Assembly (NCBI GenBank): GCA_009602725.1
Contig: WELB01000016.1
Span: forward strand, 896,242 to 960,241
Origin: Spirogloea muscicola
Taxonomy: Eukaryota > Streptophyta > Zygnematophyceae > Spirogloeales > Spirogloeaceae
Length of the DNA: 64,000 nucleotides
Reading direction: 5' to 3'
How positions within the stretch are numbered: the first letter of the stretch is position 1; every line of letters starts with the position of its first letter. The notes under the pieces were generated by a model, which saw only the letters and a list, made by a program, of their open reading frames with translations, did no database searches and was not told the origin of the DNA. Below, in pieces: positions 11,301 to 60,002 of this stretch. The translations under genes and the position numbers were made by a program.

Positions 11301-12856
11301 TTCGTTTCACTGTGGTACTCAACATCGCTGGTAACCGCTTCGTCGGGAGTCTCCCCCCCAGCATCTCGAACCTCACAAGCCTTGTCCAGGTCAGACCAGT
11401 GGCTGACTGCCTGCAACCCATCTAGTAGTCACCCCCACCATGCACAGGTCTGATAGTAGTTCTGACAATACGTGTGGCGTTGGTTGTGTCTCGCCAGCTG
11501 GATATCTCGGACAACCGTTTTGCTGGCAACATCACCGCCTCAGCAGTATTCTTCCTCCCCAATCTCCAGGTGCTGCTCTTGAATAGTGCAGTAAACCCAA
11601 GAAGTAGGAAGCCATCAGATGTGTGCATCTCACACAATTGCATACTGGCCTGGCCTGCTTCCGCTTAACTAGGGTCAACAAGTTGGGGAGCCTGACCTTT
11701 CTGTCATTGTTGAAGAGATGGGCCTGGTCAGTCGAGGTCAAGTGTAATTGCTGCCTCCTTACAAGTGAAACTCGCGTGTCACGTAGTCAGCCCATATACT
11801 CTAAAAATCTTGCAGCTCTTCAACTACGCAGACAACTTCTTCGTCGGCAAGCCGCCGCCAAATACGACAGTGGATGTCATCATTGGCGAGTATTGCAGCA
11901 GTGGGCGCTTCCAGTCATTTGCCCCGCCGCCTCCTGGTGAGCAGTCTCGATCACAGGTCACAGAAGGTATGTTGGTGTGCAAGTGGCATAGGTGGCATTC
12001 TTGTGCTTGAATATTTCTGGGCGGGATCAGAGAACTTGATAGAGTTTGCTGAGCTGTTGCGTAAACCGCATGCGCCAGAGAATCAGGATGTATGTCGCAC
12101 GGCAAGGAGTACCAGCTACAGCTCACTTTGCTGCCGTTTGGTGCCGCAGCAGGTGCGCTTCCGCCGCCACCGCCACCGTCGCCACCGCCTTCGCTACTGC
12201 CGTCACCGCGCAGTCAGCTCCAATACCATCGCCGCCTCCCACGGAATTGTTGCCGCCGCCAGCCCCAGCTTCACTGTCATCACCTCCTCCTGAATCGCCG
12301 CCGCTCACACTGCTGCCGCCAGGCCTACGTCCACCGCAGCCGCCGCCTACGGCGGTGCCCACGCTCCTGCCGCCTCCCCCTTCGCCTCATTTGCCGGTCA
12401 GCGTCCCCTTGTCTCCACCGTCACTACCAGTCGCGAGCCCTCCGCCACTGCTGCCGCCACCTCCATCGCCTCCACCCGGGGCTCCCGCCTTCCCGCCGCC
12501 GTCGCCACTGCCGCCGCCGCCGCCGCCGCCGCCAATTGTGGTGCCCACGTTGCCACCACCTCCAGTGTCACTGCCACCTCCACCGCCTCCCCTGCTGCCG
12601 CCCTTACCACCGCCACCGCCGCCACCGCTGCCTGTTCTGCCACCACAAGTGCAGCCACCACTGCCACCGCCACCGCCATCGCCACCGCCTCTGCCGCCTT
12701 CACCACCTCCGCCACCACCGCTGCCCACTTACTTATAACTGCCACCGCCGCCACCACCAGCACCATCGCCGCCGCTTCCGTCACCACCGCCGCCCCCATT
12801 GTCCCCGCCGTCTCCTCCACCACCACCGTCGCCCCCACCATCCCCCCCGCCAGCGT
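8378..12856 (+). pseudogene. Copy A of the lectin-LRR family, 5'-truncated and disabled
   Basis: The exon order matches genes B and E: 8378-8452 (partial), 8690-~8826, 8936-9028, 9292-9699, 9842-10434, 10888-11389, 11498-11569, 11816-11936, 12150-12856. Visible domains are a C-type lectin-like domain (RGPATFAQADAECQ, GGRLATLPG, WLWAERCAAFSADLWLA), a Lys run, a Pro-rich stretch, LRRNT+LRR, the GKPPPN cap and a proline array. Disablements: the signal peptide exon is missing upstream of 8378; a +4 indel in a GGTGAC run (8761-8780) puts TGA codons in exon 2; exon 2's donor GT is TT; a frameshift lies near 10275; TGA replaces a Gly codon at 11152-11154; and exon 6 is 8 bases short. It is closest to gene E. 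It ends inside the proline array, where it abuts gene D tail-to-tail. Confidence 0.8.
8393..8393. other. Single undetermined base
   Basis: One N within the first lectin exon remnant of copy A, next to C-runs. It may reflect poor assembly at the left limit of the copy. Confidence 0.95.
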
Positions 12857-15800
12857 CTGGAGGTGGCGGTGAAGGTGGCGGTGAGGGCGGCGGTGGTGAG
12901 GGCGGAGGCGGTGGTGAGGGCGGCGGTGGTGAGGGCGGCGGTGGTGAGGGCGGCGGTGGTGAGGGCGGCGGTGGTGAGGGTGGCGGTGGTGAGGGCGGCG
13001 GCGGTGGTGAGGGCGGCGGCGGTGAGGGCGGCGGTGGTGAGGGCGGCGGTGGTGAGGGCGGCGGTGGTGAGGGCGGCGGCGGTGGTGGCAGCGGCGGTGG
13101 TGGTGGCGGCGGTGGCGGTGATGGCGGCTGCGGTGGAGGCAGCGACGGTGGTGGTGGCGGCGGCGGCGGCAACGGAGGGGAGGGCGGCGGTGGTGAGGGC
13201 GGCGGCGGTGGTGGTGGCGGCGGTGGTGGTGGCGGCGGCGGCGGTGATGGCGGCGGCGGTGGTGGCGGCGGAGGCGGCAACGGAGTGGAAGGAGGTGGTG
13301 GTGACGGTGGAGGGGGTGGCACCAAGAATGGTGGTGGCAACGGCGGCAGAGGAGGAGGCTGTGGTGGTGGCGGTGATGGTGGGGGAGGCGTTGGGGGAGG
13401 AAGCGCCACTGTGGGCGACGGCGGCGGAGGCGGCGATTGGGCCAGCGGGGGCGGGAATGGTGGTGAAAATGACGGAGGTGGCGGCGGCGGGAGCTCAGGC
13501 GGCGGCGGTGGTGGCGCCAATGATGGCAGCAAAGGCGGGCTGAGCTGCAACGGCGACGGCGACGGCGGCGGCGGCAGGAGAGATGGGGGTGGGGATAGCA
13601 GTGGAACTGGGGGTGGCGGTTGCAGAAGTGCACCCACTGTGGCAGCAAAGGACAGCATGTGAGATGTAAACAGGTTGCTCTAGTGGTCAGCCACGCTACG
13701 GCAGATTTGGCACAGTTTGATAATAACAACATATAAGAGCGTGACAGGCTTATCTCGAACCCCTTCAATCATCCGAAGTAACACTCTAGCAGCTCTTGAC
13801 CGCCAATGTGTCATACTGTGGAAGCCATAGAGAGGCCTAGACTGGATGACAATTACCAGGAGGTGGTGGTGGTGGTGGTGGTGGTGGTGGTGGTGGCGGT
13901 GGCGGCAGCAACGGAGGGGAAGACGGCGGAGGTGATGGTGGAGGGGTTGGCACCAAAGATTGAGGTGGCAGTGGTGGCTGCGGGGGAGACTGTTGTGGTG
14001 GTAGTGATTGTGGCGGTGATGGTGGGGGAGGCGTTGGAGGAGGAAGCACGACTGGGGGCGACGGCGGCGGAGGTAACGATTGGGTTGGCGGGGGCGGGAA
14101 TGGTGGCGAGAATGACAACGGTGGCGGCTGCGACAGAAGAGGTGGGGCTGTTGGAGGCGAAGGCGGAGAGGCCGGTGATGCTCCAATAAGAGGCGACGGA
14201 GGTGGAGGTAGGGCTGGTAGTGATGGCAGTGGCAGCAAAAGACAGCATGTGAGAAGTCAACAGGTGGTCCGAGTGGTCAGCCACTCTACTGAAGATTTGG
14301 CACAGATTGCTTAACAACATCTATCAGCGCTTACAGCCTTATTTCATATTTCAAAGCCCTGGAGAAAATTTCGAACAGCTCTTGAACACCAATGTGTACC
14401 TACTGTGAAAGCCATAGAGAGGCCTAGATGACAATTACCAGGAGGTGGTGGTGGCGGCGGCAGTGGTGGTGGTGGTGGTGGCGGCAACGGAGGGAAAGGT
14501 GGCGGTGGTGACGGAGGGGGTGGCACCAAGAATGGTGGTGGCAATGGTAGCTGCAGCGGAGGCTGTTGTGGTGGCGGCGATTGTGGCCCTGATGGTGGGG
14601 GAGGCGTTGGAGGAGGAAGCACCACTGGGGGCGACGGCGGCGGAGGCGACAGTTGGGCTAGCGGGAGCGGGAATGGTGGCGTAAACGATGGTGGTGGCGG
14701 TGGCAGGGGAGGCGCTTGGGGAGGAGACGATGACGGAGGGGCCAGAAGTGGCGGTGAAGTTGATTGCGGCAGCGGGGATGACTGGGGCGGCGAACGGGGT
14801 GGAGAAAGCGACTCCGGAGGCAGCAATTCTGGTGCGGGTGGAGGCGGTGGGAAAGGTAGCACTGGGGGCGACGGCTGGGTCAGTGGTGGAGGGGATGGCG
14901 ATGGACGTGGTGTCGGCGGGAGCTCAGGCGACGGCGGGAATGATGCCAATGGCGGCAGCAAAGGCGGGCTGAGCTCCGGTGATGGCGACGGCGGCGGCGA
15001 CAGTAGAGATGGGGCTGTCGGAGGCAAAGGCGGAGAGACAGGAGATCCTCTACTAAGGGGCGATGGTGGTGGAGGTAGGGCTGGTAGCGGTGGCAGTGGC
15101 GGCGGACTAGACGTAGGCGACAGTGGGGATGATGTTGTTGGCGTCAACAATGGGGATGATGTTGTTGGCGAGGGTAATAGCAATGGCGCTCGTGGAGAGA
15201 ACGATGGAGGTGGAGGTGGCAATAGCAGCGGCACTGGGGGTGGCGGTTGCAGTAGTCCACTCACTGTGGCAGCAAAAGACAGCATGTGAGATGTGGTCGG
15301 CCACTCCACTAAAAACTTGGAACAGACTATATTTACAACAACTTACAGAGCTGACAACCCTATTTGAAACCCCTTCAATCATCCGAAGTAACACTTCGAG
15401 CAGCTCTTGACCATCAACCTGTACCTACTGTGAAAGCAATAGAGAGGCCTAGACTGGATGCCAATTTACCAGGAGGTGGTGGGCCAAACGCCTTGCAGTG
15501 ACCGCTGCTGCAATCCTGGCCAATGATAATGTCAATGGTTGAATTGGGCGGCGGCTTGCCCACAAAAAAGTTGTCCTTATAGTTGAATAGCTGCAAGATA
15601 GAAGATATTTCCTTAAGCTCAGCACGCGACATGAGGAAGGAGCACCAAGTCAGCAGCCGCACTTGGCATGATCTTTGGCCATACCAACCAAGGAACATAA
15701 ATGACCAGCCCTAAGCAGCTCGCCTCATGTTGCTAGGTCTGGGGAGAGATAGTGTTGGTCCATCTGCAAACTTGGAATTCTTGGCAGAAGGCAACATGAG

Positions 15801-18726
15801 TGGTAGCTGTACCTGCAGATTGGGCAAGAAGAACACCTCCGAGGTGCTGATGTTACCTGTAAAGCGGTTGCTCGAAATGTCCAGCTGCAGGCCACGCTGC
15901 GAGTCCCATCAGAGCTGTTCAGGGCAAGAATGATAGCAACAAGTGTCGCAACAAGTCGGCCATTAACCTGGACGAGGCTTGTGAGATTGCCAATGTTGAG
16001 GGGGAGGCCGCCGTTGAGGCGGTTGTCGGCAAAGTTGAGTACAAGCGTGGAGCGGAGCTGGGTGATGGCAGCGGGGAGGCCGCCGATGAGGCCGTTATCA
16101 AGCAGCACAAGCTCCGACAACGTCGGCGCGAGCTGCCCAATGCTGGCGGGAATCAGCCCGCCGAGCGCGTTGTGGGCGAGAACGGCGAGCGAGACCGGGA
16201 GGGACCCCAGATTGTTCGGGATTGGCTCCTTGAGGGCATTGTTGTTCACCGCGAGCACGTCCAGCCTCGTGCTGAATAGCGACGGTGGAAGCACGCCTGT
16301 GAAGCTATTGTGGCGCAGGTCCAGGAAACGCAGGGCAGGCAGTGCCGTGACCCACAGCGGCAGCGGGCCCGACAGGAGGTTGAGCGAGAAGTCAATCTCA
16401 GCAAGCAGACTCAGTCCGCTTAGATCTGGCAGTGCGCCGACGAAGAAGTTCTGGCTTGCATGAATGAAGCCCAGGTCCTGCGCACATTGGTCAACCAGAG
16501 GAGCCATATGAGCCACATGGACATGTCCGGAGATGGACACAGCTGACAATGTCCTTGTCTTGCATGCCCCCACCACTCTCCCCTCCAGCCGTCTTCAGTG
16601 TCTGTCCCTTCCTGCCCTGCCCTTATCCTCCGGTCGTTCTGGTAGCGATTGAGGTCTTGCAAGCCGCCAAGTCACACCAACAAGCTCGAGCTTGCAGGCT
16701 GTCTCAAGGCAAGGCACTGCTCATCCACGCTGCAGCAGAGTTGTGGTTATGCATGCTGAGAGGAGAGCTCCTGGTGCTCACCGGGAGGTTGCGCAGGAAC
16801 TGCGGAACGTAGCCATGAAGGCCAAAGCCGTTGAGGTCCAGGCCAGTGACGACCACCTGAGGCTGCACCGCCACAGCTCTGACTGCCAGTCTGGCCCCAA
16901 ATGCTGAAGCCTCTGCCGGGAGGCTGGCGGCGGCCACAGCCTGGTCCTCACAGAAGACGCCTTTCCAATTTGAGGCGCATGGTGTGGTGCCGATCCAGTT
17001 GGTGAGGTGGTCGTGTGGGTCGCGCATAGCGGCCTTGAACGCCAGTAGCAACACCCCCACCTGGGCCTGCTTACTGATAGAGGGAGGAGGGGGGACGGCC
17101 GTTCTAGGAGGAGGTGTGGAGGCCTTCACTGGCAGAGGACGGAAAGGCTTCTTCGGTGATGGCGGTGGCGCCGTCGGCCTCCAAGGGGGCCTGTGCGTCT
17201 TGGGCCGAGGCGGTTGTAGCTTGAGCAATGGAGGCGAGTGTCGCTTTGGAGGAGGCGAGCGGCGAGGAGGTGGTGGCATTGACAAACGCTTGGGTGAAAG
17301 AGGCCTGCTTGATGGTGGAGGCGACTGCGGCTTCTTCGCCGACGCCATACCTGTAGGGGGTGGCATCTGCGGCGGCTGCAGCGGCACCACAGTATGGAGC
17401 AGTATCAGTGTCGGCAATCTTCTGATATTCATTCCTGCAGCAGGCCCTATCGTGTGCAGGCCCAGACTCTACAGACAAAGCTCAAGTTCCCACAAGCTCC
17501 CGGGGCTGCAACAAGCAGAGCGGGCACCCCTCACCAGGCAGCGGACGTGGTGGTGGCCAGGGTGGTGATTGCAGCTGTGCCGCGGTCTTCCATCGTGCTT
17601 CGTGGCGCTCGGCTTTTTCTTCGACTTCTTCTTGGTTTTCTTGGTCTTTTTTTTTGTCTTTGATGTCTTTGACTCCACTCTCAAGTGCCGCCGCTCACCA
17701 CCACCACCGGTTCCATGGGCGTGGCCAATGCCAAGCGGCACCTTAAATAGGCCCTGAGAGGAGGCACTGACGGCCAATGACAGCGTGGCGCTGCAAGCCG
17801 ACTGCGAGCAGATGAATGGCGCTGTCGAGGCACACGCCACTGGGACCAGGCCGGCGTGGGCCTTACCGGCCTCTGGCACCACATGAGCACAGCGGCCTAC
17901 TGCCTTTGCTGCTGCTGCGGCTGCCTGCTGCAGCTCGTCCTGCCGCCACCATCTCAATGGCCGCACTGCATGCCAAACACCACAGATTTCAGCTGTGGGA
18001 TCGTTCCCCTGCGGCGCAAGCCAAAGCTCGGGAGCGAGTGGGCGCCAGGTTGGGTGCAGAGGAGCTCACCAGTCGCCGAGGGAGAGGCTGCCGACGGCGT
18101 CGTGGTGGCCAGCCACAGGTCCGTGGAGAAGGCCGCGCAGGGCTCCGTCCATTTCCATGGCGTCCCTCCTGCCGAAGGGAAACCGCGGAGGCGTGCGTCT
18201 TGACGCAAGCGGCAGGTACCGGATCGGACGACACTGCAGCACGAGCTGACGGGAGTTGCATACTGGTATGCAGGGAGCTGCGCACCTGGCTCTGGCACAC
18301 GCGTGGCACCCACGAAGCACCCGCCACTCCCACCATCGCCAGTGCCGCTGGGTAGTGCACGGCACAGCTCAACGGCGTCCTCGAGCGCCAAGCGCCCCAG
18401 GAGCGTTGCCAGCCGGCCGCCACGTCGCTGTGCATGCAGACGAGGCAGGGCGTCAACGGTGGCACCAATGGTGGCGACGACGGCAGGGCAAGAGCTCTAG
18501 CGACAGCAGGTCGCGGCGGGAATAGGGAGACCTGGCACTCCGCCTCGGCCTGGCCGAATGACGCCGGGCCGGGCGCCGCCAGCAGGCACGCCCCGGAGCG
18601 GGGCCCCGGCGCGAAGCCCGGCAGGCAGGCGCCATCCCCAGGCGAAGCCGCCTTCCGGGCGCCGTCCGCCATTGCGGCCGACAGAATCAAGAGCACAGCA
18701 GCCGCCGCGGCCACCGTGACCGCCAT
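12729..18726 (-). CDS. Gene D: secreted C-type lectin / Pro-rich / LRR protein with Pro-to-Gly chimeric tail
   Basis: Splice model (all GT-AG): 18532-18726, 18286-18427, 18070-18168, 17535-17965, 16782-17375, 15968-16477, 15813-15884, 15470-15590, 14439-15263, 13857-14213, 12729-13636. The sum is 4,254 bases; every junction is in phase, giving 1,417 aa. Domains in order: signal peptide (MAVTVAAAAAVLLILSAAMA), C-type lectin-like fold (CLPGF, ASFGQAEAECQ, GGRLATL, PWKWTEPC, APFICSQ), KTKKKTKKTKKKSKKK, HHPGHHH, Pro-rich, LRRNT (NWIGTTPCASNWKGVFC), about seven LRRs, the GKPPPN cap, then three successive Pro-rich exons. The last exon changes from SPPPP repeats to DAGGGDGGGDGGGG and ends SYK-stop. 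The second LRR half seen in B and E is absent. Probable wall or matrix protein (inference). Confidence 0.75.
12850..15470 (-). repeat. Three tandem copies of a Pro-rich exon plus its upstream intron
   Basis: Three units follow each other: intron 15264-15469 with exon 14439-15263, intron 14214-14438 with exon 13857-14213, and intron 13637-13856 with exon 12729-13636. The introns share the sequence around GCCATAGAGAGGCCTAGA and the TTTTGCTGCCAC acceptor region. Each exon begins and ends in phase 1, so duplication keeps the frame. Genes B, C and E have one such exon. The middle copy has lost the usual acceptor and would use a CAG about 20 bases further in. Confidence 0.8.
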
Positions 18727-25400: not shown

Positions 25401-25609
25401 AGCTTGCAGGCGGCCTGCGCAAGCGTGCTGTATACATCGATGCCCATGTCAGCCCCGACGTGCTACACATCAAGCATATGCGCGGCCTCATCTCCAGGAA
25501 TGGTACCTGTGACACAATTGTGACAGACCTACGGACAACGGCCCGGTCTGTGCTGGATACTGACATGCTCGTATATACCCAGCTTCCGAGCCCCATTATC
25601 AAAGTGTAA
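22405..25609 (+). CDS. GT92 (DUF23)-like glycosyltransferase, multi-exon, 5' part unresolved
   Basis: The two last exons are clear: 24510-24674 (KYSYCGPPMTDAIHASRVAD, WLRYHDHL, YMFYLAEGSM) and 24958-25609, joined in phase at a Lys codon (LLK-YVEDGRMTLLD). The last exon holds QQVYLDDCIHRTRG and WTLFCDLDEYLY, the acidic DxDE-type motif of GT92 enzymes, and ends PSPIIKV-stop. An earlier exon ends at 22993 (LQVYVHVGAYRTGPDEFNV, donor GTGAGT) and another probably begins at 23575 (VDKVYLRKLGVRG). Exons between 23.6 and 24.5 kb and the N-terminus (near the N gap) are not resolved, so the left limit is nominal. GT92 enzymes add galactose, for example to pectic galactans or N-glycans. Acceptor specificity here is unknown. 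Confidence 0.7.
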
Positions 25610-28883: not shown

Positions 28884-31800
28884 CTACGCCGGGCCGGGAG
28901 GTGGGGTGTTGAAATAACTGAAGCATTCACTGTACGACCTCTGGTCTGCTGGCATGTTGTCCACCGTCACATTGATGCAGTTGGAATAGATGTAGGCGAC
29001 GCTCCTCGTTCTGGCTCCGGATGGGAAGCTGGTAAAGTAGTTGTTTTCCAGGCCAAGGAAAGTCACGTTGGGCAGAGATGCAAAGCCCAGAGGCACATCA
29101 CCTGTCAGCTCGTTCGCAGCTAGGTCCACAGTCACCAGGCTGATGAGCTGCCCATACGAGGGGGGAATGACGCCCGTCAGGACGTTGCCATCCACTGAGA
29201 TATACTGCAGGAGTGGCAGGGTTGCCCAACCGTCGGGCAGTGATCCTGACAGTTGGTTGTTGGAGAGGTCCAAGACTGTCAAGAGTGTCATATTAGTGAT
29301 CGAGGCTGGCATCGCACCCTCAAGCAGATTGTTGCTCAGAGTGAGGGTGGTGAGGAGAGATAGGCTGCCAATGTCAGCTGGGATGGCCCCGCCAAACTCG
29401 TTGAAGTACAGGTTGAGCCCTCCGAGGGAGGTGAGTGATGTCAAGGACGATGGGAGGGTAGGGAATACGCCCGTTGGAGGCGATCCTACTGAGATGCTGA
29501 GAAACGTGACACGGTCGTGCTTGTCACACAGGACACCAGCCCAACTGCAGGTGCCAGTGAGACAGCCATCACAAGGTGCGGTGGAATTCCAGCTATCCAG
29601 GAGAGTTGGGTTGCCCAGCGTGGCCTTGAGGTCGAGCAGCGGCGTAGCCGAGCTTGCCGGCAGTGTGGCGCGTGCAAAGAATTGTATGCACTCTGCGTAT
29701 GACCGCTGGTTAGACCGATCTGCAAATGCAGTCAAATCTCCCAGGCAATTGTCGTAGATCAAAGGGTACGTCGTGGATATGAGGAGGGGACCAGTCAAGT
29801 AGTTACTGTCGAGATTTATGTAAATGGGGAAGTCCGGGGCTAAGAGGGCGTCTGGAATTTGGCCCGTGAATTCGTTGTCATTCATATAGACATAGGTGTA
29901 ATTGCCAAAGGCGGCAACGAATGCGGGCACCGGCCCACTGAGGACGTTGCTGGCAACACTGAGCGATGACAAGCTGATGCAGCCCGTCAGCGTGGCAGGA
30001 AGGGCCCCGGTAAGCAGGTTGTCACTCACGTCCAGGTTGCTGAGCAAGTCGAGGTTGCCAACGTCTGCCGGGATAGGCCCTGTCAGCTGGTTGCTGTTGA
30101 GATAGAGGCTGGTGAGGAGGAGCAGCGTGGATGTGACAAATGCTGGAATGGGGCCTTGAAGGCTGCTGTCCTCCAGATAGAGCTGCTGCAGGGTCGTGAA
30201 ATTCGCCAACGTCATTGGAAATGGGCGACCACCGGCATTGTATAGAGAGGACAGATCAAGAGTTGTGACGTGCCCAAAGCTGTCACAACCAAGCCCTGTG
30301 AGGATGCAGCCATAGGGGCAGCCAGCGCAGGGGTCAACGGCGTTGCTTGAATACCAATTCAATTGAAATGGATTACCAAGCTCAACCTTGAGTTCGAGGA
30401 GGCTGACTGTGGATGTCGGCGGGAGCGCTGCGAGCTCATAGAAGGCAAAGCAATCTTGCCAATCGCGTTGTCCGGGAATAGACACGCCCTTGCTCACCCC
30501 GAAGCAGTTGTATGTGTCAGGGCTGAATTGAGTGGCTGCACCCGTAAAGTAATTTGAGTAGATATTCAGCTCTCGTAGCCCCGGCTGGAGGACAACAAGG
30601 TCGCCAGAGAAAAGGTTCTCGCTGACGTCGAGCTCAATCAGCGATTGGAGACCGAGGACGACTTGGATGTCGCCAGATAACCAGTTACGGGATAAGTCGA
30701 GGTTGCTAAGGAGCGGCAGTGAGCCCAATGTTGTAGGAATGGGCCCCTGCAGCGGGCCCTCGTATGCCAATGACAGGGTTGTCAGCTCCTTCAAATTCCC
30801 CAGAGACGCTGGGATCTCGCCTGTGAAATCGTTCCATCCCAGGTCCCTAGCCACAGGCAAAGCTTGGCAGGTATCAGCAACTCTGAAGCGGCTTCTAATC
30901 ACAGACAACTGACTTGACATGGCAACCATTTGCACCAATTAAGTATATGCCATGGCCCGTCGACCAATGTCATCCCTTCATGACTCGACTATGGTGAGAG
31001 GAAGTACCGGCCCAAGCCATACCTCGTTGGCTTTTGACTGAATGCCTTAACTGAATCTATGCTGAATCAACATGCAACAATGCTGCCCACAGCCCTAAGC
31101 CTGGGACCCTCCTCACGAACCTGAACACTCAATCCTATGATCAAGCCCTGAGTGCTGAGGTGCGAGGAAGGATCGAAAGATCGGCAATTCCTCAGCCGTA
31201 TGCCCGCCCGTTGACTAAGGTGAGAGCCTCACAAGATTTGCAGATTGGTGAGATTGCCGAGCTCCGAAGGGATGGGGCCAAACAAGCCGATGAAGGGCAG
31301 CGTTAGCTGCTGAAGGCTGGCGAGGCTGCCAAGGCTGGCCGGCATGTTCCCAAGGTAACGATAACCAGTATTCTCAAGGTTGATCCTGATCACAGAGCCT
31401 TGGTCATCGCAAGTCACTCCAGACCATGCACATGATGCCTCCGTGCCAGGAATGCAGCCGTCGCAGGGGTTGGACGTATTCCAGGTGGCGACTTGCTCTG
31501 ACGTACCGATGAGCACCGCCTTGAGCTCCAGAAGGATTGCCAGTTGGTCGAGCAAAGGGCCGGGTGTACTCGGCGGTGGGGGAGGCGCTGGCGGCGGTAA
31601 GACTGGTGGGGATGGCGGCGGCGGTGGTGGTGGTGGCGGGGGCTGTGGTGGCGGCGGCAGCAGCAACGGAGGGGACGGCGGCGGTGGTGACGTTGGAGGG
31701 GGTGGCACCATGAATGGCGGTGGCAATGGTGGCTGCGGAGGAGGCTCTTGTGGTGGCGGTGATAGGGGGGGAGGCGTTGGAGGAGCAAGCATCGCTGGGG

Positions 31801-34800
31801 GCGACGGCGGCGGAGGCGACGACTGGGCTAGCGGGGGTGGGAACGGTGGCGAGATTGACGATGGTGGCGGTGGCGGCAGGGGAGGAGATGGGGGAGGAGG
31901 TGGTGACCGAGGGGCCAAAAGCGAGGTTGGAACTGGGGGCGGTGTTGGGGATAAATGGGGCGGCGGAGAGGGCGGAGAAAGCGACTCTGCAGGCGGCACT
32001 TTTGGTGCCGGTGGAGACGGTGGGAAAGGTATCACTGGGGGCGACGGCTGGTTCAGTGGTGGCGGGGATAGTGGGGAGAGTGGCGGCGGATGTAGCGTCG
32101 GCGGGAGCTCAGGTGGCGGTAGTGGCGGTGCCAATGGCGGCAGCAATGGCGGGCTGAGCTTCAGCGACGGCGACGGCGGCGGCGACAGTTGAGATGGGGC
32201 TGTTGGAGGCAAAGGTGGAGAGGCCGGTGATGCTCCAGTAAGAGGCGGCGGTGGTGGAGGTAGGGCTGGTAGCGATGGCAGTGGCGGCGGACTGGACGGG
32301 GGCGGCAACAGTGGGGATGATGTTGTTGGCGAGGGTGGTATCGATGGCACTTGTGGAGAGAGCAACGGAGGTGGAGGTGGGGATAGCAGCGGAACTGGGG
32401 TTGGCGGTTGCAGAACTGCACCCACTGTGGCAGCAAAATACGCATTTGCGATGTCAACAGGTGGGCCCTAGTGATTAGCCACACTACTGAAGATATGGCA
32501 CAGATTGTTCTGACAATATCTGACAGCGCTGACAGCCCGTACCCCCGTCACTATTTGAAGTAACACTTGAGCAGCTCTTGACCACCAACCTGTGAAGTCA
32601 GCTTACTGTGAAAGCAAGAGAGAGGCCTAGACTGGATGCCAATTACCAGGAGGTGGTGGGCCAAATGCCTGGCAGTGACCGCTGCTGCAATCCTCGCCAA
32701 TGACAATGTCGATTGTTGTATTGGGTGGCGGCTTGCCCACAAAGAAATTGTCTTCATAGCTGAATAGCTGCAAGAGCAGAGCAATTGCCTTGAGCACGCG
32801 ACACGAGGAAGAAGCACCAAGGCAAGAAGCAGCAGCCGCACTGGGCATGCTCTTTGGCATACCAGCCGAGGAACATACACTGATGACTAGCCCCAAGCAG
32901 CTCGCCCCATGTTGCTAGGTCCAAGGAGAGTTAGTGTTGGTCAACCTGCAACTTTGTCTTTCTTGGCAGAAGGGCACATAAGTGGGAGATGTACCTGCAG
33001 ATTGGGTAAGAAGAACACCCCCGAGGTGGTGATGTTGCCTGCGAAGCGGTTGCCCGCAATGTCCAGCTGGAGGCCACGCTGCGAGTCCCCGTCAGCTCTG
33101 TTCAGGGCAGAATAACAGCAACGAGGAAAACAACAAGTTGGCCAGTCACCTGGACGAGGCTTGTGAGATTGCCGATGTTGAGGGGGAGGCCGCCGTTGAG
33201 ACGGTTGTCAGCGAAGTTGAGTACAAGCGTGGAGCGGAGCTGGGTGATGGTTTCGGGGAGGCCACCAATGAGGCCGTTGTCGAGCAGCACAAGCTCCGAC
33301 AACGTTGACGCGAGCTGCCCAATGCTGGCGGGAATCAGCCCGCCGAGCGCGTTGTGGGCGAGAACGGCGAGGGAGACGGGGAGGGAGCCCAGATTCATCG
33401 GAATTGGCTCCTTGAGGGCATTGTTGTTCACTGCAAGCACGTCCAACCGCGTGCTGAATAGCGATGGTGGAAGCACACCTGTGAAGCTGTTGTGGCGCAG
33501 GTCCAGGAAACGCAGGGCAGGCAGTGCTGTGACCCACAGCGGCAGCGGGCCCGACAGGAGGTTGAGCGAGAAGTCAATCTCAGCGAGCAGACTCAGTCCG
33601 CTTAGATCTGGCAGTGCGCCGACGAAGAAGTTCTGGCTTGCATGAATGAAGCCCAGGTCCTGCTCACAATGGTCGACCAGAGGAGCCATAAGACCCACAT
33701 GGACATGTTCAGAGATTGATACAGCTGTCAATGTCCTTTTCTTGCATGCCCTCACCCCTCTCCCCTCCATCCATCTTCACTTTTTGTCCCTTCTGCCCTT
33801 TCTGCGCTGCCCTCATCCTCCGGTCGTTCTGATGGAGGTCTTGCAAGCCGCCAGGTCACACCAACAAGCTCGACCTTGCCAGGCTGTGAAGTCTCTGCAA
33901 GGCACTGCTCATTCACGCAGCAGCAGAGTTGCGGTTTTGCATGCTGAGAGGAGAGCTCCCGGTGCTCACCGGGAGGTTGCGCAGGAACTGCGGAACGTAG
34001 CCATGAAGGCCAAAGCCGTTGAGGTCCAGGCCAGTGACGACCATCTGAGGCTGTGCCGCCACAGCCCTGACTGCCAGTGTGGCCCCAAATGCTGAGGCCT
34101 CTGCTGGGAGGCTGGCGGCGGCCACAGCCTGGTCCTCACAGTAGACGCCATTCCAACTTGAGGCGCATGGTGTGGTGCCAATCCAGTTGGTGAGGTAGCC
34201 GTGGGGGTCGCGCATAGCGGCTTTGAAGGCCAGTAGCGACACCCCCGCCTGGGCCTGCTTACTCACAGAGGGAGGAGGGGGGTTGGCCTTTCTAGGAGGG
34301 GGTGTGGAGGGCTTCAGTGGCAGAGGACGGAAAGGCTTCTTCGGTGATGGCGGTGGCGCCGGCGCCCTCGGTGGGGACCTGTGCGTCTTGGGCGGAGGCG
34401 AGTGTGGCTTGAGCAATGGAGGCGGTTGTAGCTTGAGCCATGGAGGCGAGTGTCGTTTGGGAGGAGGCGAGCGGCGAGGAGGTGGTGGCAATGACTGCCG
34501 CTTGGGTGAAGGAGGCCTGCTTGATGGTGGAGGCGCCTGCGGCTTCTTCGGTGGCGCCCTCCCTGTAGGGGGTGGCATCTGCGGCGGCTGCAGCGGCACC
34601 ACGGGATTGAGCCGTATCAGTGTCGGCAATCTTCTGATATTATTTCCTGCAGCAGGCCCTATTGTGTGCAGGCCCAACTTCTGCAGACAAAGCCCAAGCT
34701 CTCAAAATGCTCGCAGGGCTGCAGCAAGCAGAGCGGGCACCCCTCACCAAGCAGCGGATGTGGTGGTGGCCAGGGTGGTGATTGCAGCTGTGCCGCGGTC

Positions 34801-35926
34801 TGCCATCGTGCTTCGTGCCGCCCAGCTTTTTCTTCGACTTCTTCTTAGTTTTCTTTGTCTTCTTCTTTGTCTTTGTCGTCTTCGCCTCCACTCTCAAGTG
34901 CCGCCGCTCACCGCCACTACTGGCGCCGTGGGCTTGGCCGACGCCAAGCAGCACCTTCAAGAGGCCCTGAGAGGTGGCACTGACGGCGAATGACAGCGTG
35001 GCGCTGCAAGCCGACTGCGAGCAGATGGATGGCGCTGTCGAGGCGCACGCCACTGGGACCAGGCCGGCGTGGGCCTTACCGGCCTCTGGCACCACATGAG
35101 CACAACGTCCCATTGCCTTTGCTGCTGCTGCGGCTGCCTGCTGCAGCTCGTCCTGCTGCCACCATCTCAGTGGCCGCACTGCATGCCAGCCACCACAGTT
35201 TTCAGCAGTGGGATCGTTCCTTTGCGGCGCAAGCCACAGCGCGGGAGCGAGTGGGCGCCAGGTTGGGTGCAGTGGAGCTCACCAGCTGCCGAGGGAGAGG
35301 CTGCCGACGGCGTCGTAGTTGCCAGCCACAGGTCCGTGGAGAAGGCCGCGCAGGGCTCCGTCCACCTCCATGGCGGGCCTGCGCAGGGGGCGCCCGTCTT
35401 GACGAAAGCGGTACATAACCACTTGGGCCTTTCTGCAGCACGAGCTGATGGGAGTTGCTCTGGTATACCGAGAGCTGCGCACCTGGCTCTGGCCCACGGG
35501 TGGCGCCCACAAGGCAGCCGCTGCTGCTCCCACCATCGCCAGCGCCGCCGGGTAACGCTCGACACAGCTCCGCCGCGTCCGCGAGCGCCGAGCGCCCCAG
35601 GAGCGTCGCCAGCCGGCCACCACGTCGCTGTGCATGCAGACGAGGCTGGGCGTCAATGGTGGCACCAATGGTGGCGACGACGGCGAGGCAGGAGCTCGAG
35701 CGACAGCAGGTCGCGGCGGGAATAGGGAGACCTGGCACTCCGCCTCGGCCTGGCCGAATGACGCCGGGCCGGGCGCCGCCAGCAGGCACGCCCCGGAGCG
35801 GGGCCCCGGCGCGAAGCCCGGCAGGCAGGCGCCGCCCCCAGGCGAAGCCGCGTCCCGGGCGCCGTCCGCCATTGCGGCCGACAGAGTCAAGAGCACAGCA
35901 GCCGCCGCCGCCGCCGTGACCGCCAT
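28884..35926 (-). CDS. Gene B: complete secreted C-type lectin / Pro-rich / four-module LRR protein
   Basis: Ten exons, all GT-AG: 35732-35926, 35483-35627, 35283-35378, 34748-35178, 33970-34587, 33150-33659, 32995-33066, 32647-32767, 31233-32424, 28884-30846. They total 5,343 bases in perfect phase, 1,780 aa. Signal peptide ~1-22; C-type lectin-like domain ~34-200 (CLPGFAPGPRSGACLL, AEAECQ, GGRLATL, WRWTEPC, ICSQ); KTKKKTKKTKKKSKKK ~250-270; HHPGHHH; Pro/Ser/Lys-rich ~290-410; LRRNT plus LRRs ~415-690; second Pro-rich block ~735-1010; then three LRRNT+LRR modules to the end (NTPPPGPA). LRRs are the plant extracellular type (LxGxIPxxLGxLxxLxxLxL). Module caps carry NC...QR.(W/Y)..C. No membrane helix is seen after the signal peptide, so it is probably a secreted wall or matrix protein. 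No EPN/WND sugar-site triplet is evident, so carbohydrate binding is unproven. Confidence 0.85.
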
Positions 35927-36450
35927 GGCCGCGCGCGCCCAGGAGGCGGCTCTCTCAGTGTCTCGGCCACAGTCAGTCTCCCCGAGATGCGCCCGAGCGG
36001 GCCAGCCTGTGCCGCCGGATCTGGCCCATCCACAGTACCGCGATCTCTGAGAGGGCGGCCAAGCCGCAGTGACCGTCGGATTTGATCCTACGACGCTGCG
36101 CGAAGCTCCCACTTTTCTCCGGGTCAATCGAAAGTCCGGCACTTTCTCGCGGGGCTAGCTCGCCCGCCTTCCCGCCACCTCGTGCAATTGACGCCACGTG
36201 GAAGCTTGTGGATCGATGAAAAGTCCGGAGGTCCCCAAGCCCGGGCCTCTCCTTTTTTTCCCTTCCGGCTGCTAGTCTTCCGGATGTGCGGCTCCTCACT
36301 CGTGGTTACTAAGTGACCCATCCTACCCAAGGACACTGAGACAGAAGAAAGACGCTTCCAGGAAACGGGCGGTGGCTCGCAGAGGCCAGCCCAGGAAAAA
36401 AAGTAATGCTCTGCGACAGCCCTTTTGGCCTCATTGCCTCATTTCCCCCC
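35927..36450 (-). promoter_or_regulatory. 5' flank of gene B, duplicated with gene D
   Basis: Aligns with 18727-19250 up to a C-run (36447-36453), including the retroelement tail (stop near 36312) and hairpin (36370-36392). The retroelement insertion therefore predates the B/D duplication. Promoter elements are not resolved. Confidence 0.5.
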
Positions 36451-37254: not shown

Positions 37255-40200
37255 TTATAGCCGGCTAGGAGATGGAGCGACTACATAGCCAGAGCAATCG
37301 CTATACGGTCTTTGATCTGCTGGCATGTTATCCACTGTCACATTGATATAATTGAAGCTGATGTCAACGATTACCGCTGTTGCTACTGCAGGGAAGCTGG
37401 TGAGGAAGTTGTCACTCAATTCCAGGATGTATAATGAGGTCAAGTAGGCAATGACAGCCGGGACAGGCCCGCTCAGCTGGTTGTCATCGAGATAAAGATA
37501 ATTTAAGCTGACGCAGCCCACAAAAGAGTCTGGGAGGGCCCCACTCAGCTGATTGCCGCTGAGGTCCAGGTTGGATAGCCTGTCCAGATTGCCTATGTCC
37601 TTTGGTAGAGGTCCGCTGAGCTGGTTGTCCTTAAGCCGAAGGTCTGAGAGGAAGAGCAATCTGGATGTGACAAATGCTGGGATGGATCCGTAGAGGAAGG
37701 TGCCACTCAAGTCCAGGACGGATAATGAGGTCAAGTTGCCAATGACAGCCGGGACAGGCCCGTTCAGCTGGTTGTCATGGAGGTCAAGATAATTTGAGCT
37801 GATGCAGCCCACAAAAGACTCTGGGAGGGCCCCACTTAGCAGATTGCCACTGAGGTCCAGGTTGGATAGCATGTCCAGATTGCCTATGTCTGTTGGTAGA
37901 GGTCCGCTGAGCTGGTTGTTGCTGAGATCGAGGTCTGTGAGGAGGAGCAATCTGGATGTGACAAATGCTGGGATGGACCCGTAGAGGCCAAGACTCGGAA
38001 GATAAAGCTCTTGTAGGGTTGTCAGACTTGTCAATGTCGTTGGGAATGGGCGACCACCGGCATTGGATAGGAAGCTCAGATCAAGATACGTGACGTGCCC
38101 AAAGTAGTCACAATTGAGCTGGGCAATGTTGCAGTTCTCGGGGCAGCCAGCGCAAGGGTCAACGGCGTTGCTTGAATTCCAATCCAACTCAACTGGATTA
38201 CCAACTCAACTGGATTACCAAGCTCAACCTTGAGAGCGAGGAGGCTGGCTATGGATGTCGGCGGGAGCGCTGCTAGCTCATAGAAGGCAAAGCAATCTTG
38301 CCAATCGCGTTGTCCAGGAATGGACACGCCCTTGCTCACCCCTAAGTAGTTGTCTACGTCGTCATAGCCGAATTGAGTGGTGGCTGCACCCATGAAGTAA
38401 TTTAAGTAGATATTGTAGTTGTAGCCCCGGCTGGAGGCCCACAATGTCGCCAGAGAAATGGTTCGCGCTGACGTCGAGCTCAGTCAGCGATTGGAGACCG
38501 AGGACGACTTGGATGTTGCCAGATAATGTATTTGAAGATAAGTCGAGGTGGTTAAGGAGCGGCAGTGAGCCCAGCGCTGCAGGAATGGGCCCCTGCAGCT
38601 GATTATTTGCCAGATGCAGGGTTGTCAGCATCTCCAAATTCCCCAGAGATGCTGGGATCTCGCCTGTGAGAAGGTTATCCCCCAGGTCCCTAGCCACAGG
38701 CAAAGCTTGGCGAGCATCAGCAACTCTGAAGCGGCATCTATACACAGACTACTGGCTTGACATGGCCAACGTTGGAACCAAAGAAGTATGCCATGGCCCT
38801 TCGACCAATGTCATCACTTCATGACTTGACTCTTGTGAGAGGAAGTACTGGCCCAAGCCATACCTGAATGCCTTAAATGAATCTATGCGGAATTAACATG
38901 CAAGAAATCTGCCCACAATTCCGAGCCTGGGATCCTCCTCAGACCTAAGCCCAAGCCCTGAATGCTGGGGTGAGAGGGAGGTGCAAAGAATGTGCAATTA
39001 CTCATTTCGCACGCACGCCATTGCATATGTTGGAGCCTCACAAGATTTGCATGTTGGCGAGATTGCCAAGCTCCGGTGGGATGGCGCCAGTCAAGCCTTG
39101 GAATGGCAGCGATAGCTGCTGAAGGCTGGCGAGGCTGCCAAGGCTGGCCGGAATGCCGCCGGAGGGGTAATAACCAGTGCCTTCAAGATTGACCCCAATC
39201 ACAGAGGCTTGGTCGTCGCAAGTCACTCCAGACCATGCACATGATGCTTCTGTGCCAGGGACGCAGCCATCGCAGGGGTTGGACGTATTCCAGGTGGCGA
39301 CTTGAACTGACGTATTGATGACCACCACCTTGAGCTCCAAGAGGATTGCCAGTTGGTCGAGCAATGGGCCGGGTGTACTCGGCGGTGGGGGAGGCGCTGG
39401 CGGCGGTAAGACTGGTGGGGATGGCGGCGGCGGCGGTGGTGGTGGCGGCGGCGGCGGTGGTGGCGGCATCGGCGGCAACGGAGGGGACGGCGGCGATGGT
39501 GACGGCGGAGGGGGTGGCACCATGAATGGTGGTGGCAACGGTGGCTGCAGGGGAGGCTGTTGTGGTGGCGGTGATGGTGGGGGAGGTGTTGGAGGAGGAA
39601 GCACCACTGAGGGCGACGGCGGCGGAGGCGACGACTGGGCTAGCGGGGGTGGGAATGGTGGCAAGATGGACAATGGTGGCGGTGGCGGCAGGGGAGGAGA
39701 TGGGGGAGGAGGTGGTGACCGAGGGGCCAAAGGCGACGTTGGAACTGGAGGCGGTGTTGGGGATAAATGGGGCAGCGGGGGGGGCGGAGAAAGCGACTCC
39801 GGAGGCGGCACTTTTGGTGCCGGTGGAAGGGTACCACTCTGGGCGATGGCTGGTTCAGTGGTGGCAGGGATAGTGGGGAGAATGGCGGCGGACGTGGCGT
39901 CGGCGGGAGCTCAGGTGCCGGCAGTGGCGGTGCCAATGGCGGCAGCAACGGCGGGCTGAGCTCCGGCGACGGCGATGGTGGCGGCAACAGTTGAGATGGG
40001 GCTGTTGGGGGCGAAAGTGGAGAGGCCGGTGATGCTCCAGTAAGAGGCGGCGGTGGTGGAGGTAGGGCTGGTAGCGATGGCAGTGGCGGCGGACTGGATG
40101 GGGGCTGCAACAGTGGGGATGATATTGTTGGCGAGGGTGATGTTGATAGCGCTTGTGGAGAGAGCAACGGAGGTGGAGGTGGGGATAGCAGCGGAACTGG

Positions 40201-43200
40201 GGTTGGCGGTTGCAGAACTGCACCCACTGTGGCAGCAAAATACGCATTTGCGATGTCAACAGGTGGCCCTAGTGATTAGCCACACTACTGAAGATATGGC
40301 ACAGATTGTACTAACAATATCTGACAGCGTTGACAGCCCGTACCCCCGTCACTATTCGAAGTAACACTTGAGCAGCTGTTGACCACCAACCTGTGGAGTC
40401 AGCTTACTGTGAAAGCAAGAGAGAGGCCTAGACTGGATGCCAATTACCAGGAGGTGGTGGGCCAAATGCCTGGCAGTGACCGCTGCTGCAATCCTCGCCA
40501 ATGACAATGTCGATTGTTGTATTGGGCGGCGGCTTGCCCACAAAGAAATTGTCTTCATAGTTGAATAGCTGCAAGAGCAGAGCAATGCCTTAAGCTCAGC
40601 ACGCGACACGAGGAAGAAGCACCAAGGCAAGAAGCAGCAGCCGCACTGGGCATGCTCTTTGGCATACCAGCCGAGGAACATACAGAGATGACTAGCCCCA
40701 AGCAGCTCGCCCCATGCTGCTAGGTCCAAGGAGTGTTAGTGTTGGTCAACCTGCAACTTTGGCTTTCTTGGCAAAAGGGCACATAAGTGGGAGATGTACC
40801 TGCAGATTGGGTAAGAAGAACACCCCCGAGGTGGTGATGTTGCCTGCGAAGCGGTTGCCCGCAATGTCCAGCTGGAGGCCACGCTGCGAGTCCCCGTCAG
40901 AGCTGTTCAGGGCAGAATAACAGCAACGAGGAACACAACAAGTTGGCCAGTCACCTGGACGAGGCTTGTGAGATTGCCGATGTTGAGGGGGAGGCCGCCG
41001 TTGAGGCGGTTGTCGGCAAAGTTGAGTACAAGCGTGGAGCGGAGCTGCGTGATGGTTGCGGGGAGGCCACCAATGAGGCCGTTGTCGAGCAGCACAAGCT
41101 CCGACAACGTGGACGCGAGCTGCCCAATGCTGGCGGCCGCCGAGCGCGTTGTGGGCGAGAACGGCGAGCGAGACCGGGAGGGAGCCCAGATTGTTCGGAA
41201 TTGGCTCCTTGAGGGCATTGTTGTTCACTGCGAGCACGTCCAACCGCGTGCTGAATAGCGATGGTGGAAGCACGCCTGTGAAGCTGTTGTGGCGCAGGTC
41301 CAGGAAACGCAGGGCAGGCAGTGCTGTGACCCACAGCGGCAGCGGGCCCGACAGGAGGTTGAGCGAGAAGTCAATCTCGGCGAGCAGACTCAGTCCGCTT
41401 AGATCTGGCAGTGCGCCGACAAAGAAGTTCTGGCTTGCATGAATGAAGCCCAGGTCCTGCGCACAATGGTCAACCAGAGGAGCCATAAGACCCACATGGA
41501 CATGTTCACAGATTGATACAGCTGTCAAAGTCTTTTTTTTGCATGCCCTCACTCTTTCCCCTCCAGCCATCTTCACTTTCTGTCCCTTCTGCCCTTTCTG
41601 CGCTGCCCTTATCCTCCGGTTGTTCTGATGGAGATTGAGGTCTTGCAAGCCGCCAGGTCACACCAACAAGCTCGACCTTGCCAGGCTGTGAAGTCTCTGC
41701 AAGGCACTGCTCATTCACGCAGCAGCAGAGTTGCGGTTTCGCATGCTGAGAGGAGAGCTCCCGGTGCTCACTGGGAGGTTGCGCAGGAACTGCGGAACGT
41801 AGCCATGAAGGCCAAAGCCGTTGAGGTCCAGGCCAGTGACGACCATCTGAGGCTGCGCCGCCACAGCCCTGACTGCCAGTGTGGCCCCAATTGCTGAGGC
41901 CTCTGCTGGGAGGCTGGCGGCGGCCACAGCCTGGTCCTCACAGTAGACGCCATTCCAACTTGAGGCACATGGTGTGGTACCGATCCAGTTGGTGAGGTAG
42001 CCGTGGGGGTCGCGCACAGCGGCCTTGAAGGCCAGTAGCGACACCCCCGCCTGGGCCTGCTTACTCACAGAGGGAGGAGGGGGGTTGGCCTTTCTAGGAG
42101 GGGGTGTGGAGGGCTTCAGTGGCAGAGGACGGAAAGGCTTCTTCGGTGATGGCGGTGGCGCCGGCGCCCTCGGTGGGGACCTGTGCGTCTTGGGCGGAGG
42201 CGAGTGTGGCAGTGGAGGCGGTTGTAGCTTTAGCAATGGAGGCGAGTGCCGCTTGGGAGGAGGCGAGCGGCGAGGAGGTGGTGGCAATGACTGCCGCTTG
42301 GGTGAAGGAGGCCTGCTTGATGGTGGAGGCGACTGCGGCTTCTTCGGTGGCGCCCTCCCTGTAGGGGGTGGCATCTGCGGCGGCTACAGCGGCACCACAG
42401 TACCGAGCCGTATCAGTGTCGGCAATCTTCTGATACTATTTCCTGCAGCAGGCCCTATTGGGTGCAGGCCCAACTTCTGCAGACAAAGCCCAAGCTCTCA
42501 TAATGCTCGCAGGGCTGCAGCAAGCAGAGCGGGCATCCCTCACAAAGCAGCGGATGTGGTGGTGGCCAGGGTGGTGATTGCAGCTGTGCCGCGGTCTGCC
42601 ATCGTGCTTCGTGCCGCCCGGCGTGTTCTTCGACTTCGTCTTAGTCTTCTTTGTCTTCTTCTTTGTCTTTGACGTCTTCGCCTCCACACTCAAGTGTCGC
42701 CGCTCACCGCCACTACCAGCGCCGTGGGCTTGGCCGACGCCAAGCAGCACCTTGAAGAGGCCCTGGGAGGTGGCACTGCCGGTGAATGACAGCGTGGCAC
42801 TGCAAGCCGACTGCGAGCAGATGGATGGCGCTGTCGAGGCGCACGCCACTGGGACCAGGCCGGCGTGGGCCTTACCGGCCTCTGGCACCACATGAGCACA
42901 GCGGCCCATTGCCTTTGCTGCTGCTGCGGCTGCCTGCTGCAGCTCGTCCTGCTGCCACCATCTCAGTGGCCGCACTGCATGCCAACCACCACAGTCTTCA
43001 GCAGTGGGATCGTTCCTTTGCGGCGCAAGCCACAGGGCGGGAGCGAGTGAGCGCCAAGTTGGGTGCAGTGGAGCTCACCAGCTGCCGTTGGAGAGGCTGC
43101 TGACGGCGTCGTAGTGGCCAGCCACAGGTCCGTGGAGAAGGCCGCGCAGGGCTCCGTCCACCTCCATGGCGGGCCTGCGCAGGGGGCGCCCGTCTTGACG

Positions 43201-43724
43201 AAAGCGGTACATAACCACTTGGGCCTTTCTGCAGCACGAGCTGATGGGAGTTGCATACTGGTATACCGAGAGCTGCGCACCTGGCTCTGGCCCACGGGTG
43301 GCGCCCACGAGGCAGCCGCTGCTGCTCCCACCATCGCCAGCGCCGCCGGGTAACGCTCGACACAGCTCCGCCGCGTCCTCGAGCGTCGAGCGCCCCAGGA
43401 GCGTCGTTAGCCGGCCACCACGTCGCTGTGCATGCAGACGAGGTAGGGCGTCAATGGTGGCACCAATGGGGCCGACGACGGCGGGGCAAGAGCTCTAGCG
43501 ACAGCAGGTCGCGGCGGGAATAAAGAGACCTGGCACTCCGCCTCGGCCTGCTCGAAGGAGGCCGGGCCCCGTGCCACCAGCAGGCACGCCCCAGAGCGCG
43601 GCCCCGGCGCGAAGCCCGGCAGGCAGGCGCCGCCGCCAGGCGAAGTTGCCGTCCGGGCGCCATCCGCCATTGCGGCCGACAGAGTCAAGAGCACCGCCGT
43701 CGCCGCCGCCGCCGTGACAGTCAT
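37255..43724 (-). pseudogene. Copy C of the lectin-LRR family, several frameshifts
   Basis: Exons by alignment to B: 43530-43724, 43281-43425, 43079-43174, 42544-42974, 41772-42383, 40955-41456, 40800-40871, 40448-40568, 39042-40226, 37255-38689. The first half is intact (signal peptide MTVTAAAATAVLLTLSAAMA, full lectin domain, Pro-rich, LRRNT). Damage: an 8-base deletion in the first LRR exon at 41131-41140 (502 instead of 510 bases), an indel near 39830 in the Pro-rich exon, and frame changes near 38430 and at 38180-38222, where AACTCAACTGGATTACC is duplicated (17 bases). The terminal LRR piece (37255-38187) is open but shorter than in B and ends differently (VVAPSPSRL). A truncated lectin plus Pro-rich product could still be made. 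Confidence 0.8.
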
Positions 43725-59800: not shown

Positions 59801-59968
59801 TGGCGGAGGCGGCGAAGGAGGCGGTGGCGGTGGCGGTGGCGGTGGCGGCTGCACTTGGGGTGGCAGAACAGGCACCGGTGGTGGCGGTGGCGGTGGTAAG
59901 GGCGGCAGCAAGGGAGATGGTGGGGGTGGCAATGACACTGACGGTGGTGGCAAAGCGGGCACCACAGT

Positions 59969-60002
<34 letters not shown>

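What the first reader, a model, noticed from the sequence alone, without database searches (positions are those of the whole stretch)
28884..35926. Secreted protein family joining an animal-type C-type lectin domain, Hyp-rich segments and four plant-type LRR modules
Gene B closes as ten in-phase exons, 1,780 aa. The order signal peptide, C-type lectin fold, Lys/His linker, extensin-like Pro block, LRRNT+LRR, Pro block, three LRRNT+LRR is repeated in copies A, C, D (first half) and E. C-type lectin domains are rare in the green lineage (reported in Chlamydomonas together with SRCR domains). I know of no described family with this combination. Two recognition modules on a wall-type rod suggest an extracellular recognition or adhesion system, which is inference.
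Basis: partly seen in the sequence, partly recalled or inferred. Interest (0 to 1): 0.87.

Follow-up and report, generated by a model that had tools for sequence, protein, structure and literature searches.

The report
Secreted algal lectin-fold LRR proteins

Summary
The architecture is real. Copy B closes as ten GT-AG exons (1,811 aa): signal peptide, C-type-lectin-like domain, Lys/His segment, Pro block, LRR module, Pro block, three LRR modules. The exon order recurs on other contigs of the genome, and public protein P0003 has the same plan in one gene. The window is scaffold 16 of, almost certainly, Spirogloea muscicola, a streptophyte, not a chlorophyte. Three protein searches found no relative outside it, within their limits. 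The lectin call is probable, not proven: Pfam stays below cut-off and two structure predictions failed, but the best PDB match is C-type-lectin-like (E=0.0095) and the six-cysteine spacing fits. Calcium/sugar motifs are absent. In the window only B and E have four LRR modules; C has three and is frame-broken; A and D are half copies. New here: LRR module 1 is nearly invariant, while in modules 2-4 exposed xxLxLxx residues are hypervariable (26 of 70 against 65 of 492 other sites), and B is a recombinant of two subfamilies. Best reading: a matrix-anchored recognition family with constant and variable halves; ligand and role are inferred.

The parts
35732..35926 (-). Copy B exon 1: start codon, signal peptide, first part of the C-type-lectin-like domain (C0, C0', C1)
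35483..35627 (-). Copy B exon 2: lectin-like domain
   Evidence: B-E dN/dS 0.20
35283..35378 (-). Copy B exon 3: lectin-like domain (WxW segment)
   Evidence: same joint in public protein P0003
34748..35178 (-). Copy B exon 4: end of lectin-like domain (C2, C3, C4), then Lys-rich and Cys/His segment
33970..34680 (-). Copy B exon 5: Pro block 1 and LRRNT of LRR module 1
   Evidence: LRRNT_2 41.5 bits
33150..33659 (-). Copy B exon 6: LRRs of module 1, nearly invariant between copies
32995..33066 (-). Copy B exon 7: end of LRR module 1
32647..32767 (-). Copy B exon 8: cap of LRR module 1, leads into Pro block 2
31233..32424 (-). Copy B exon 9: Pro block 2 and LRRNT of LRR module 2
   Evidence: LRRNT_2 28.9 bits
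28884..30846 (-). Copy B exon 10: rest of LRR module 2, modules 3 and 4, stop
30060..30259 (.). Switch point: B is B-type above it and E-type below it
   Evidence: 100-base identity steps
37258..43724 (-). Copy C: same plan with three LRR modules; 8-base deletion in exon 6, 10-base gap in Pro block 2
56848..63996 (-). Copy E: second subfamily, matches to all ten exons, four LRR modules; exon 1 cut at the window end
15468..18726 (-). Copy D: exons 1-8 only, then further Pro-rich stretches
8378..11938 (+). Copy A: exons 1-8 of the E-type, frame-broken, opposite strand

Best explanation
A family of secreted Hyp-rich matrix proteins with a constant and a variable half. Shown by computation: the gene structure and domain order, at least 13 copies in two subfamilies, an almost invariant LRR module 1, LRR modules 2-4 whose solvent-exposed xxLxLxx residues vary while the scaffold is held, and exchange of LRR sequence between the subfamilies. 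Inferred: the signal peptide sends the protein to wall or mucilage; the Pro blocks become glycosylated polyproline rods; the basic Lys/His segment binds acidic polysaccharide; the lectin-like domain and LRR module 1 dock to a fixed matrix or receptor partner; the variable LRR faces bind changing extracellular ligands, most likely proteins of microbes (an apoplastic defence like PGIPs), less likely self or mating partners.
For: Exon order recurs on other contigs (C137, C345, C223) with conserved splice sites; P0003 is one such gene. Signal peptide and no other strongly hydrophobic stretch. Exon 10 of E, C137 and C223c: 26 of 70 exposed sites vary against 2 of 98 core and 65 of 492 other sites, Fisher exposed against other 5e-6, pN/pS 0.92, 0.08 and 0.35. 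Exon 6 of the same copies: 1 of 25 exposed sites (Fisher against exon 10 0.0014). The five highest pN values along the repeat fall on the five x positions. B switches subfamily near 30,160, with B-E dS 1.19 in exon 6 and 0.32 in exon 10. Exon 10 matches plant LRR receptor ectodomains best, FLS2 6e-96.
Against: Pooled exposed pN/pS does not exceed 1 and 8 of 10 pairwise ratios are below 1, so relaxed constraint is possible. The main test uses three copies; a smaller B-type set agrees (10 of 15 exposed, 49 of 161 other). No transcript, localisation or ligand data. Several copies are broken or partial. The public model of B reads Pro block 1 and part of Pro block 2 in other frames (P0002).
Confidence: 0.5

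Rival explanations
1. Structural matrix glycoproteins: the protein mainly builds wall or mucilage, and the variation in LRR modules 2-4 reflects relaxed constraint and birth-and-death of copies, without recognition.
For: Two long Pro blocks; exposed pN/pS near 1 and not above it in pooled data; partial and broken copies.
Against: Relaxed constraint alone does not explain why variation sits on the x positions while LRR core sites of the same exon stay at 2 of 98 and exposed sites of module 1 at 1 of 25.
Confidence: 0.3
2. Two or more separate genes: a lectin/LRR-1 gene (exons 1-8) and an LRR gene (exons 9-10), or the opposite error, one fused C+B gene as in the public annotation.
For: SM000016S01964 fuses C and B into 3,113 aa. 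D, A and C8 show the first half only. Splice sites beyond exon 8 are less well supported in other copies.
Against: SM000345S12840 (P0003) is annotated as one gene with the full plan. Exons 1-10 lie in order on C137, C345 and C223. B has its own conserved start codon and signal peptide, and C ends in its own stop.
Confidence: 0.12
3. The N-terminal domain is not a C-type-lectin-like fold but another cysteine-rich module.
For: Below the Pfam cut-off; Lectin_C reaches only E=0.086 in one of five members. Two AlphaFold2 models at pLDDT 38. hhalign aligns only 30 columns with 11% probability. EPN/QPD and WND absent.
Against: First hits in the PDB are C-type-lectin-like: ovocleidin-17 0.0095, codakine 0.097, C1q receptor 0.26. 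hhalign score 23.4 against a maximum of 20.7 in 100 column shuffles. Long-form cysteine spacing.
Confidence: 0.2

Closest known systems
Leucine-rich repeat extensins (LRX/PEX)
   Same: Secreted LRR domain joined to a Ser-Pro-rich rod; LRX2 and PEX1 ectodomains are among the solved structures that exon 10 matches
   Different: LRX: one N-terminal LRR domain then a C-terminal extensin tail, and absent from the four algae of one survey (PMC4769139, passages). Here: lectin-like domain, two Pro blocks, four LRR modules, no Tyr in the Pro blocks
Chlamydomonas MST3 and other CTL/SRCR proteins
   Same: Signal peptide, poly-Pro and C-type lectin domains in an extracellular algal protein (PMC11015965, passages; PMC8226300, passage)
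   Different: MST3 has five C-type lectin domains, Ig-like domains and a PKD2-like membrane part; none was seen here, and MST3 is not described with LRRs
Polygalacturonase-inhibiting proteins (PGIP)
   Same: Secreted plant-type LRRs; PGIP structures are matched; paralogue variation in the xxLxLxx region (PMC4115169, passages)
   Different: PGIPs are single LRR domains without lectin-like or Pro parts (recalled)
Plant resistance-gene clusters and LRR receptor ectodomains
   Same: FLS2-like LRRs, hypervariable exposed LRR residues and sequence exchange among clustered copies, as in a coffee R-gene cluster (PMC3113787, abstract and passages)
   Different: No kinase, NB domain or transmembrane segment found; secreted; Ka/Ks above 1 not established
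Polycystin-1
   Same: LRR and C-type lectin domain in one extracellular protein (recalled)
   Different: Animal membrane protein with PKD, REJ and transmembrane parts (recalled); here plant-type LRRs and a secreted Pro-rich rod

Membership tests
C-type lectin-like domain superfamily | Match to Pfam Lectin_C above cut-off | tested here: not met
   1 of 5 members at E=0.086, none above cut-off; the lectin query used a provisional splice and counts for nothing
C-type lectin-like domain superfamily | Long-form disulfide cysteines in order and spacing | tested here: met
   B: x12, x16, then x18, x7 against x10, x16, x16, x7 in ovocleidin-17; the [WFY]xxAxxxC...C-C-C signature arises in 61-94 of 200,000 shuffles. 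The six-cysteine pattern itself arises in 316-829 of 200,000. E lacks C0 because its exon 1 is cut; the stricter WxW pattern fits B but not C345 or E
C-type lectin-like domain superfamily | Sequence similarity to solved members | tested here: inconclusive
   First hits are members, at E 0.0095, 0.097 and 0.26; hhalign beats 100 of 100 shuffles with a short alignment
C-type lectin-like domain superfamily | Predicted fold | tested here: inconclusive
   pLDDT 38.0 and 38.2
C-type lectin-like domain superfamily | Ca2+/sugar motifs EPN or QPD and WND (needed for classical lectin activity, not for the fold) | tested here: not met
   Absent by eye from the lectin-like domain of B and the aligned copies
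LRX (leucine-rich repeat extensin) | Signal peptide, N-terminal LRR domain, C-terminal extensin domain in that order | tested here: not met
   Order differs; LRR modules at the C-terminus
LRX (leucine-rich repeat extensin) | Ser-Pro3-5 repeats | tested here: met
   SP3+ motifs: 2 in Pro block 1, 9 in Pro block 2; no Tyr in either
Plant-type LRR with LRRNT_2 caps | LRRNT_2 and LRR above Pfam cut-off | tested here: met
   LRRNT_2 above cut-off in modules 1, 2 and 4, not 3; LRR_1 and LRR_8 in exon 10, LRR_1 in exon 6
R-gene-like diversifying LRR families | Exposed xxLxLxx residues more variable than other sites | tested here: met
   26 of 70 against 65 of 492, Fisher 5e-6, in exon 10; not in exon 6
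R-gene-like diversifying LRR families | Ka/Ks above 1 at exposed residues | tested here: inconclusive
   Pooled 0.92; 2 of 10 pairs above 1, no significance test
R-gene-like diversifying LRR families | Sequence exchange among clustered paralogues | tested here: met
   Mosaic B, dS contrast

The most novel reading that the evidence does not exclude
This alga carries a soluble, wall-anchored recognition repertoire: each protein has a constant half (lectin-like docking domain plus an invariant LRR module) and a variable half of LRR modules, diversified by change at binding residues and by swapping LRR segments between paralogues. It would be an extracellular counterpart of resistance-gene clusters in the algal sister group of land plants.
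Probability: 0.35. Interest if true: 0.82.

Novelty: new variant of a known kind. Interest (0 to 1): 0.64.

Why it matters
[quoted passage not shown] It also adds plant-type LRR modules to the partners of C-type-lectin-like domains in green organisms. The public gene model fuses copies B and C and so hides the family's plan at this locus.

Tried and rejected
A Lectin_C family search of the own genome found nothing and rang in no control genome, so it was uninformative. Three protein searches found only proteins with this genome's gene names. Searches scored only about 8,000 candidates, and low-complexity words may have crowded out relatives; one search scored its 1,297 candidates at E up to 1; each search sees only proteins of 0.55-1.75 times the query length. 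So absence elsewhere is not shown. A chlorophyte origin was rejected on scaffold coordinates: s16:925125-939965 of P0002 equals window 28884-43724. The fused C+B model was rejected (see rivals). Substitution pattern in the Pro blocks is only weak support for the frame: Pro block 2, B against C, 24 synonymous and 32 non-synonymous single-change codons in the reported frame, 7/46 and 17/31 in the others; in Pro block 1 the frames are hardly separated. My first splice script was off by one at exons 3 and 8, corrected. Searches were scripts of mine that failed, repeated. Whole-genome triplication as the source of the copies is recalled only; the word did not occur in the one paper in which I looked (PMC11096116). 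The genome held here has 153.1 Mb against 174 listed for S. muscicola there.
Full report
What was checked. The finding describes one gene (copy B) on the minus strand, window 35926-28884, and several copies. I rebuilt B as ten exons: 35926-35732, 35627-35483, 35378-35283, 35178-34748, 34680-33970, 33659-33150, 33066-32995, 32767-32647, 32424-31233 and 30846-28884. All borders are GT-AG, phases fit, and one 1,811-aa frame results. Exons 1-4 and 5-8 were aligned as DNA across copies A to E. For exon 3 I took the frame in which the aligned copies share PPWxW..C...S..LWLA; public protein P0003 reads it the same way. In both Pro blocks of B the reported frame is the only one without stops.

Origin. 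A homologue search with the first 288 residues returned one protein, EukProt SM000223S07323 at s223:115734-116843, which falls on the own-genome match at C223:116475. A second search returned SM000016S01964 at s16:925125-939965. With the window at C16:896242-960241 this is window 28884-43724, the stop of B and the start of C. The gene-name style is that of Spirogloea muscicola, which I recognised from memory; no call names the species. That species belongs to Zygnematophyceae, Streptophyta. The finding's chlorophyte frame is therefore almost certainly wrong.

Family. A search of the own genome with the exon 4 peptide of E gave 18 rows. I read them as 13 distinct places, 4 repeats of the same places in other frames, and one weak place on C113. 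B-type copies are B, C, D, one at C16:877 kb, C345, C8 and two on C223; E-type copies are A, E, C137 and two on C223. Exons lie in the order of B on C137, C345 and at two places of C223, as in the window; not every exon was detected at each place. In ten copies 71 of 72 testable donors of exons 1-8 are GT and 65 of 65 testable acceptors of exons 2-8 are AG; the exception is exon 8 of one C223 copy (my count). For exons 9 and 10 the figures are 4 of 5 donors, 2 of 3 and 4 of 7 acceptors; some of the failures are in copies without those exons. P0003 (SM000345S12840, 1,880 aa) shows the whole plan in one gene. Within the window only B and E have four LRR modules. C has three and is frame-broken, and D and A stop after exon 8. 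The public model P0002 fuses C and B, leaves out exon 1 of B and reads Pro block 1 in another frame.

The lectin-like domain. Of five correctly spliced members, one reaches Lectin_C at E=0.086, below cut-off, and no other Pfam family appears at E<=10. A single-sequence search of the PDB puts ovocleidin-17 first at E=0.0095; the next hits, an arginine hydroxylase at 0.31 and 0.34, are unrelated. The profile search puts codakine (0.097) and the C1q receptor (0.26) first and second. hhalign against nine C-type lectin domains scores 23.4, above all 100 column shuffles (maximum 20.7), but aligns 30 columns with 11% probability. Cysteine spacing matches the long form: C0-x12-C0'-x16-C1, then C2-x18-C3-x7-C4, against x10, x16, x16 and x7 in ovocleidin-17. 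A signature with [WFY]xxAxxxC and the last three cysteines arises in 61-94 of 200,000 shuffles; I chose it after seeing the sequence. EPN/QPD and WND are missing by eye. Two AlphaFold2 attempts decide nothing. I put the C-type-lectin-like fold at about 0.8.

Rods and LRRs. Pro block 1 has 114 aa (43% Pro, 10% Lys); Pro block 2 has 295 aa (54% Pro, nine SP3+ motifs); neither has Tyr. LRRNT_2 passes the cut-off in modules 1, 2 and 4, not 3. Exon 10 matches plant LRR receptor ectodomains best, FLS2 at 6e-96; PGIP and LRX structures follow at 1e-28 to 1e-25. Apart from the signal peptide no 19-residue stretch has mean hydropathy above 1.6, and the protein ends in PPPGPA without a hydrophobic tail, so a secreted protein is the simplest reading.

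Constant and variable halves. For E-type copies E, C137 and C223c, exon 10 varies at 26 of 70 exposed xxLxLxx sites, 2 of 98 core sites and 65 of 492 other sites; pN/pS is 0.92, 0.08 and 0.35 (Fisher exposed against other 5e-6). Core positions were chosen by a pattern that requires hydrophobic residues in E, which favours low counts there; the contrast with 'other' sites is free of that. Exon 6 of the same copies varies at 1 of 25 exposed sites (ratio 0.07), and exon 6 of six B-type copies at 3 of 30 (0.06). Synonymous divergence of the two exons is similar in these copies (0.10-0.13 and 0.13-0.15), so age does not explain it. A smaller B-type set for the 5' part of exon 10 agrees: 10 of 15 exposed, 49 of 161 other. 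Between subfamilies, exon 6 varies at 8 of 30 exposed and 32 of 98 other sites, no excess. Over five sequences the five highest pN values along the repeat are at positions 3, 5, 8, 2 and 7, the x residues, at 0.90-1.82 times the LRR-wide pS. Against a strong claim: pooled ratios do not exceed 1, and 8 of 10 pairwise ratios are below 1.

Recombination. B-E synonymous divergence is 0.91 in exon 2, 0.77 in exon 4 and 1.19 in exon 6 but 0.32 in exon 10. In 100-base steps B is 45-71% identical to E above about 30,160 and 79-98% below; against C345 it goes from 65-90% to 47-75%. B is a mosaic, and a second C137 locus has the same pattern.

Comparison. The order of LRX and its absence from four surveyed algae are from PMC4769139 (passages). 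C-type lectin domains with poly-Pro are known from Chlamydomonas MST3 (PMC11015965, passages), and CTL/SRCR gene expansion from PMC8226300 (passage). [quoted passage not shown] Exposed-residue selection with gene conversion is reported for a coffee resistance-gene cluster (PMC3113787, abstract and passages) and xxLxLxx variation for PGIPs (PMC4115169, passages). Searches for Spirogloea with C-type lectin, and with extensin and leucine-rich repeat, each listed one paper, the same review of receptor kinases, which I did not open. C-type lectin with leucine-rich repeat and algal terms listed three papers each. I found no description of this family in that open-access library.

Judgement. The family is a new variant of chimeric Hyp-rich LRR proteins. 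The architecture and the two-speed LRR evolution are computed results; recognition is the best-supported function; ligand, location and the role of the lectin-like domain are inferred.

Noticed in passing
window 28884-43724: The public gene model SM000016S01964 spans copies C and B as one 3,113-aa protein and leaves out exon 1 of B.
   Followed up: yes
window 34748-34834 and the other copies: The segment KHDGxPRHSCNHHPGxHHxRC after the Lys-rich run is one of the best conserved stretches between subfamilies; it looks like a metal- or polyanion-binding motif and has no Pfam match.
   Followed up: partly
window about 12400-15400: After exon 8 of copy D come several Pro-rich blocks in the place of LRR exons.
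   Followed up: no
window about 1300-3200 and 46900-49900: Open stretches that look like reverse transcriptase and integrase of LTR retroelements lie between the copies (by eye only).
   Followed up: no
window about 24900-25600, + strand: An open stretch with a CDLDEYLY segment looks like part of a glycosyltransferase (by eye only).
   Followed up: no
G000:C137:30533-34622: A second locus beside the C137 copy shows exons 8-10 with the same mosaic as B; its upstream exons were not looked for.
   Followed up: partly
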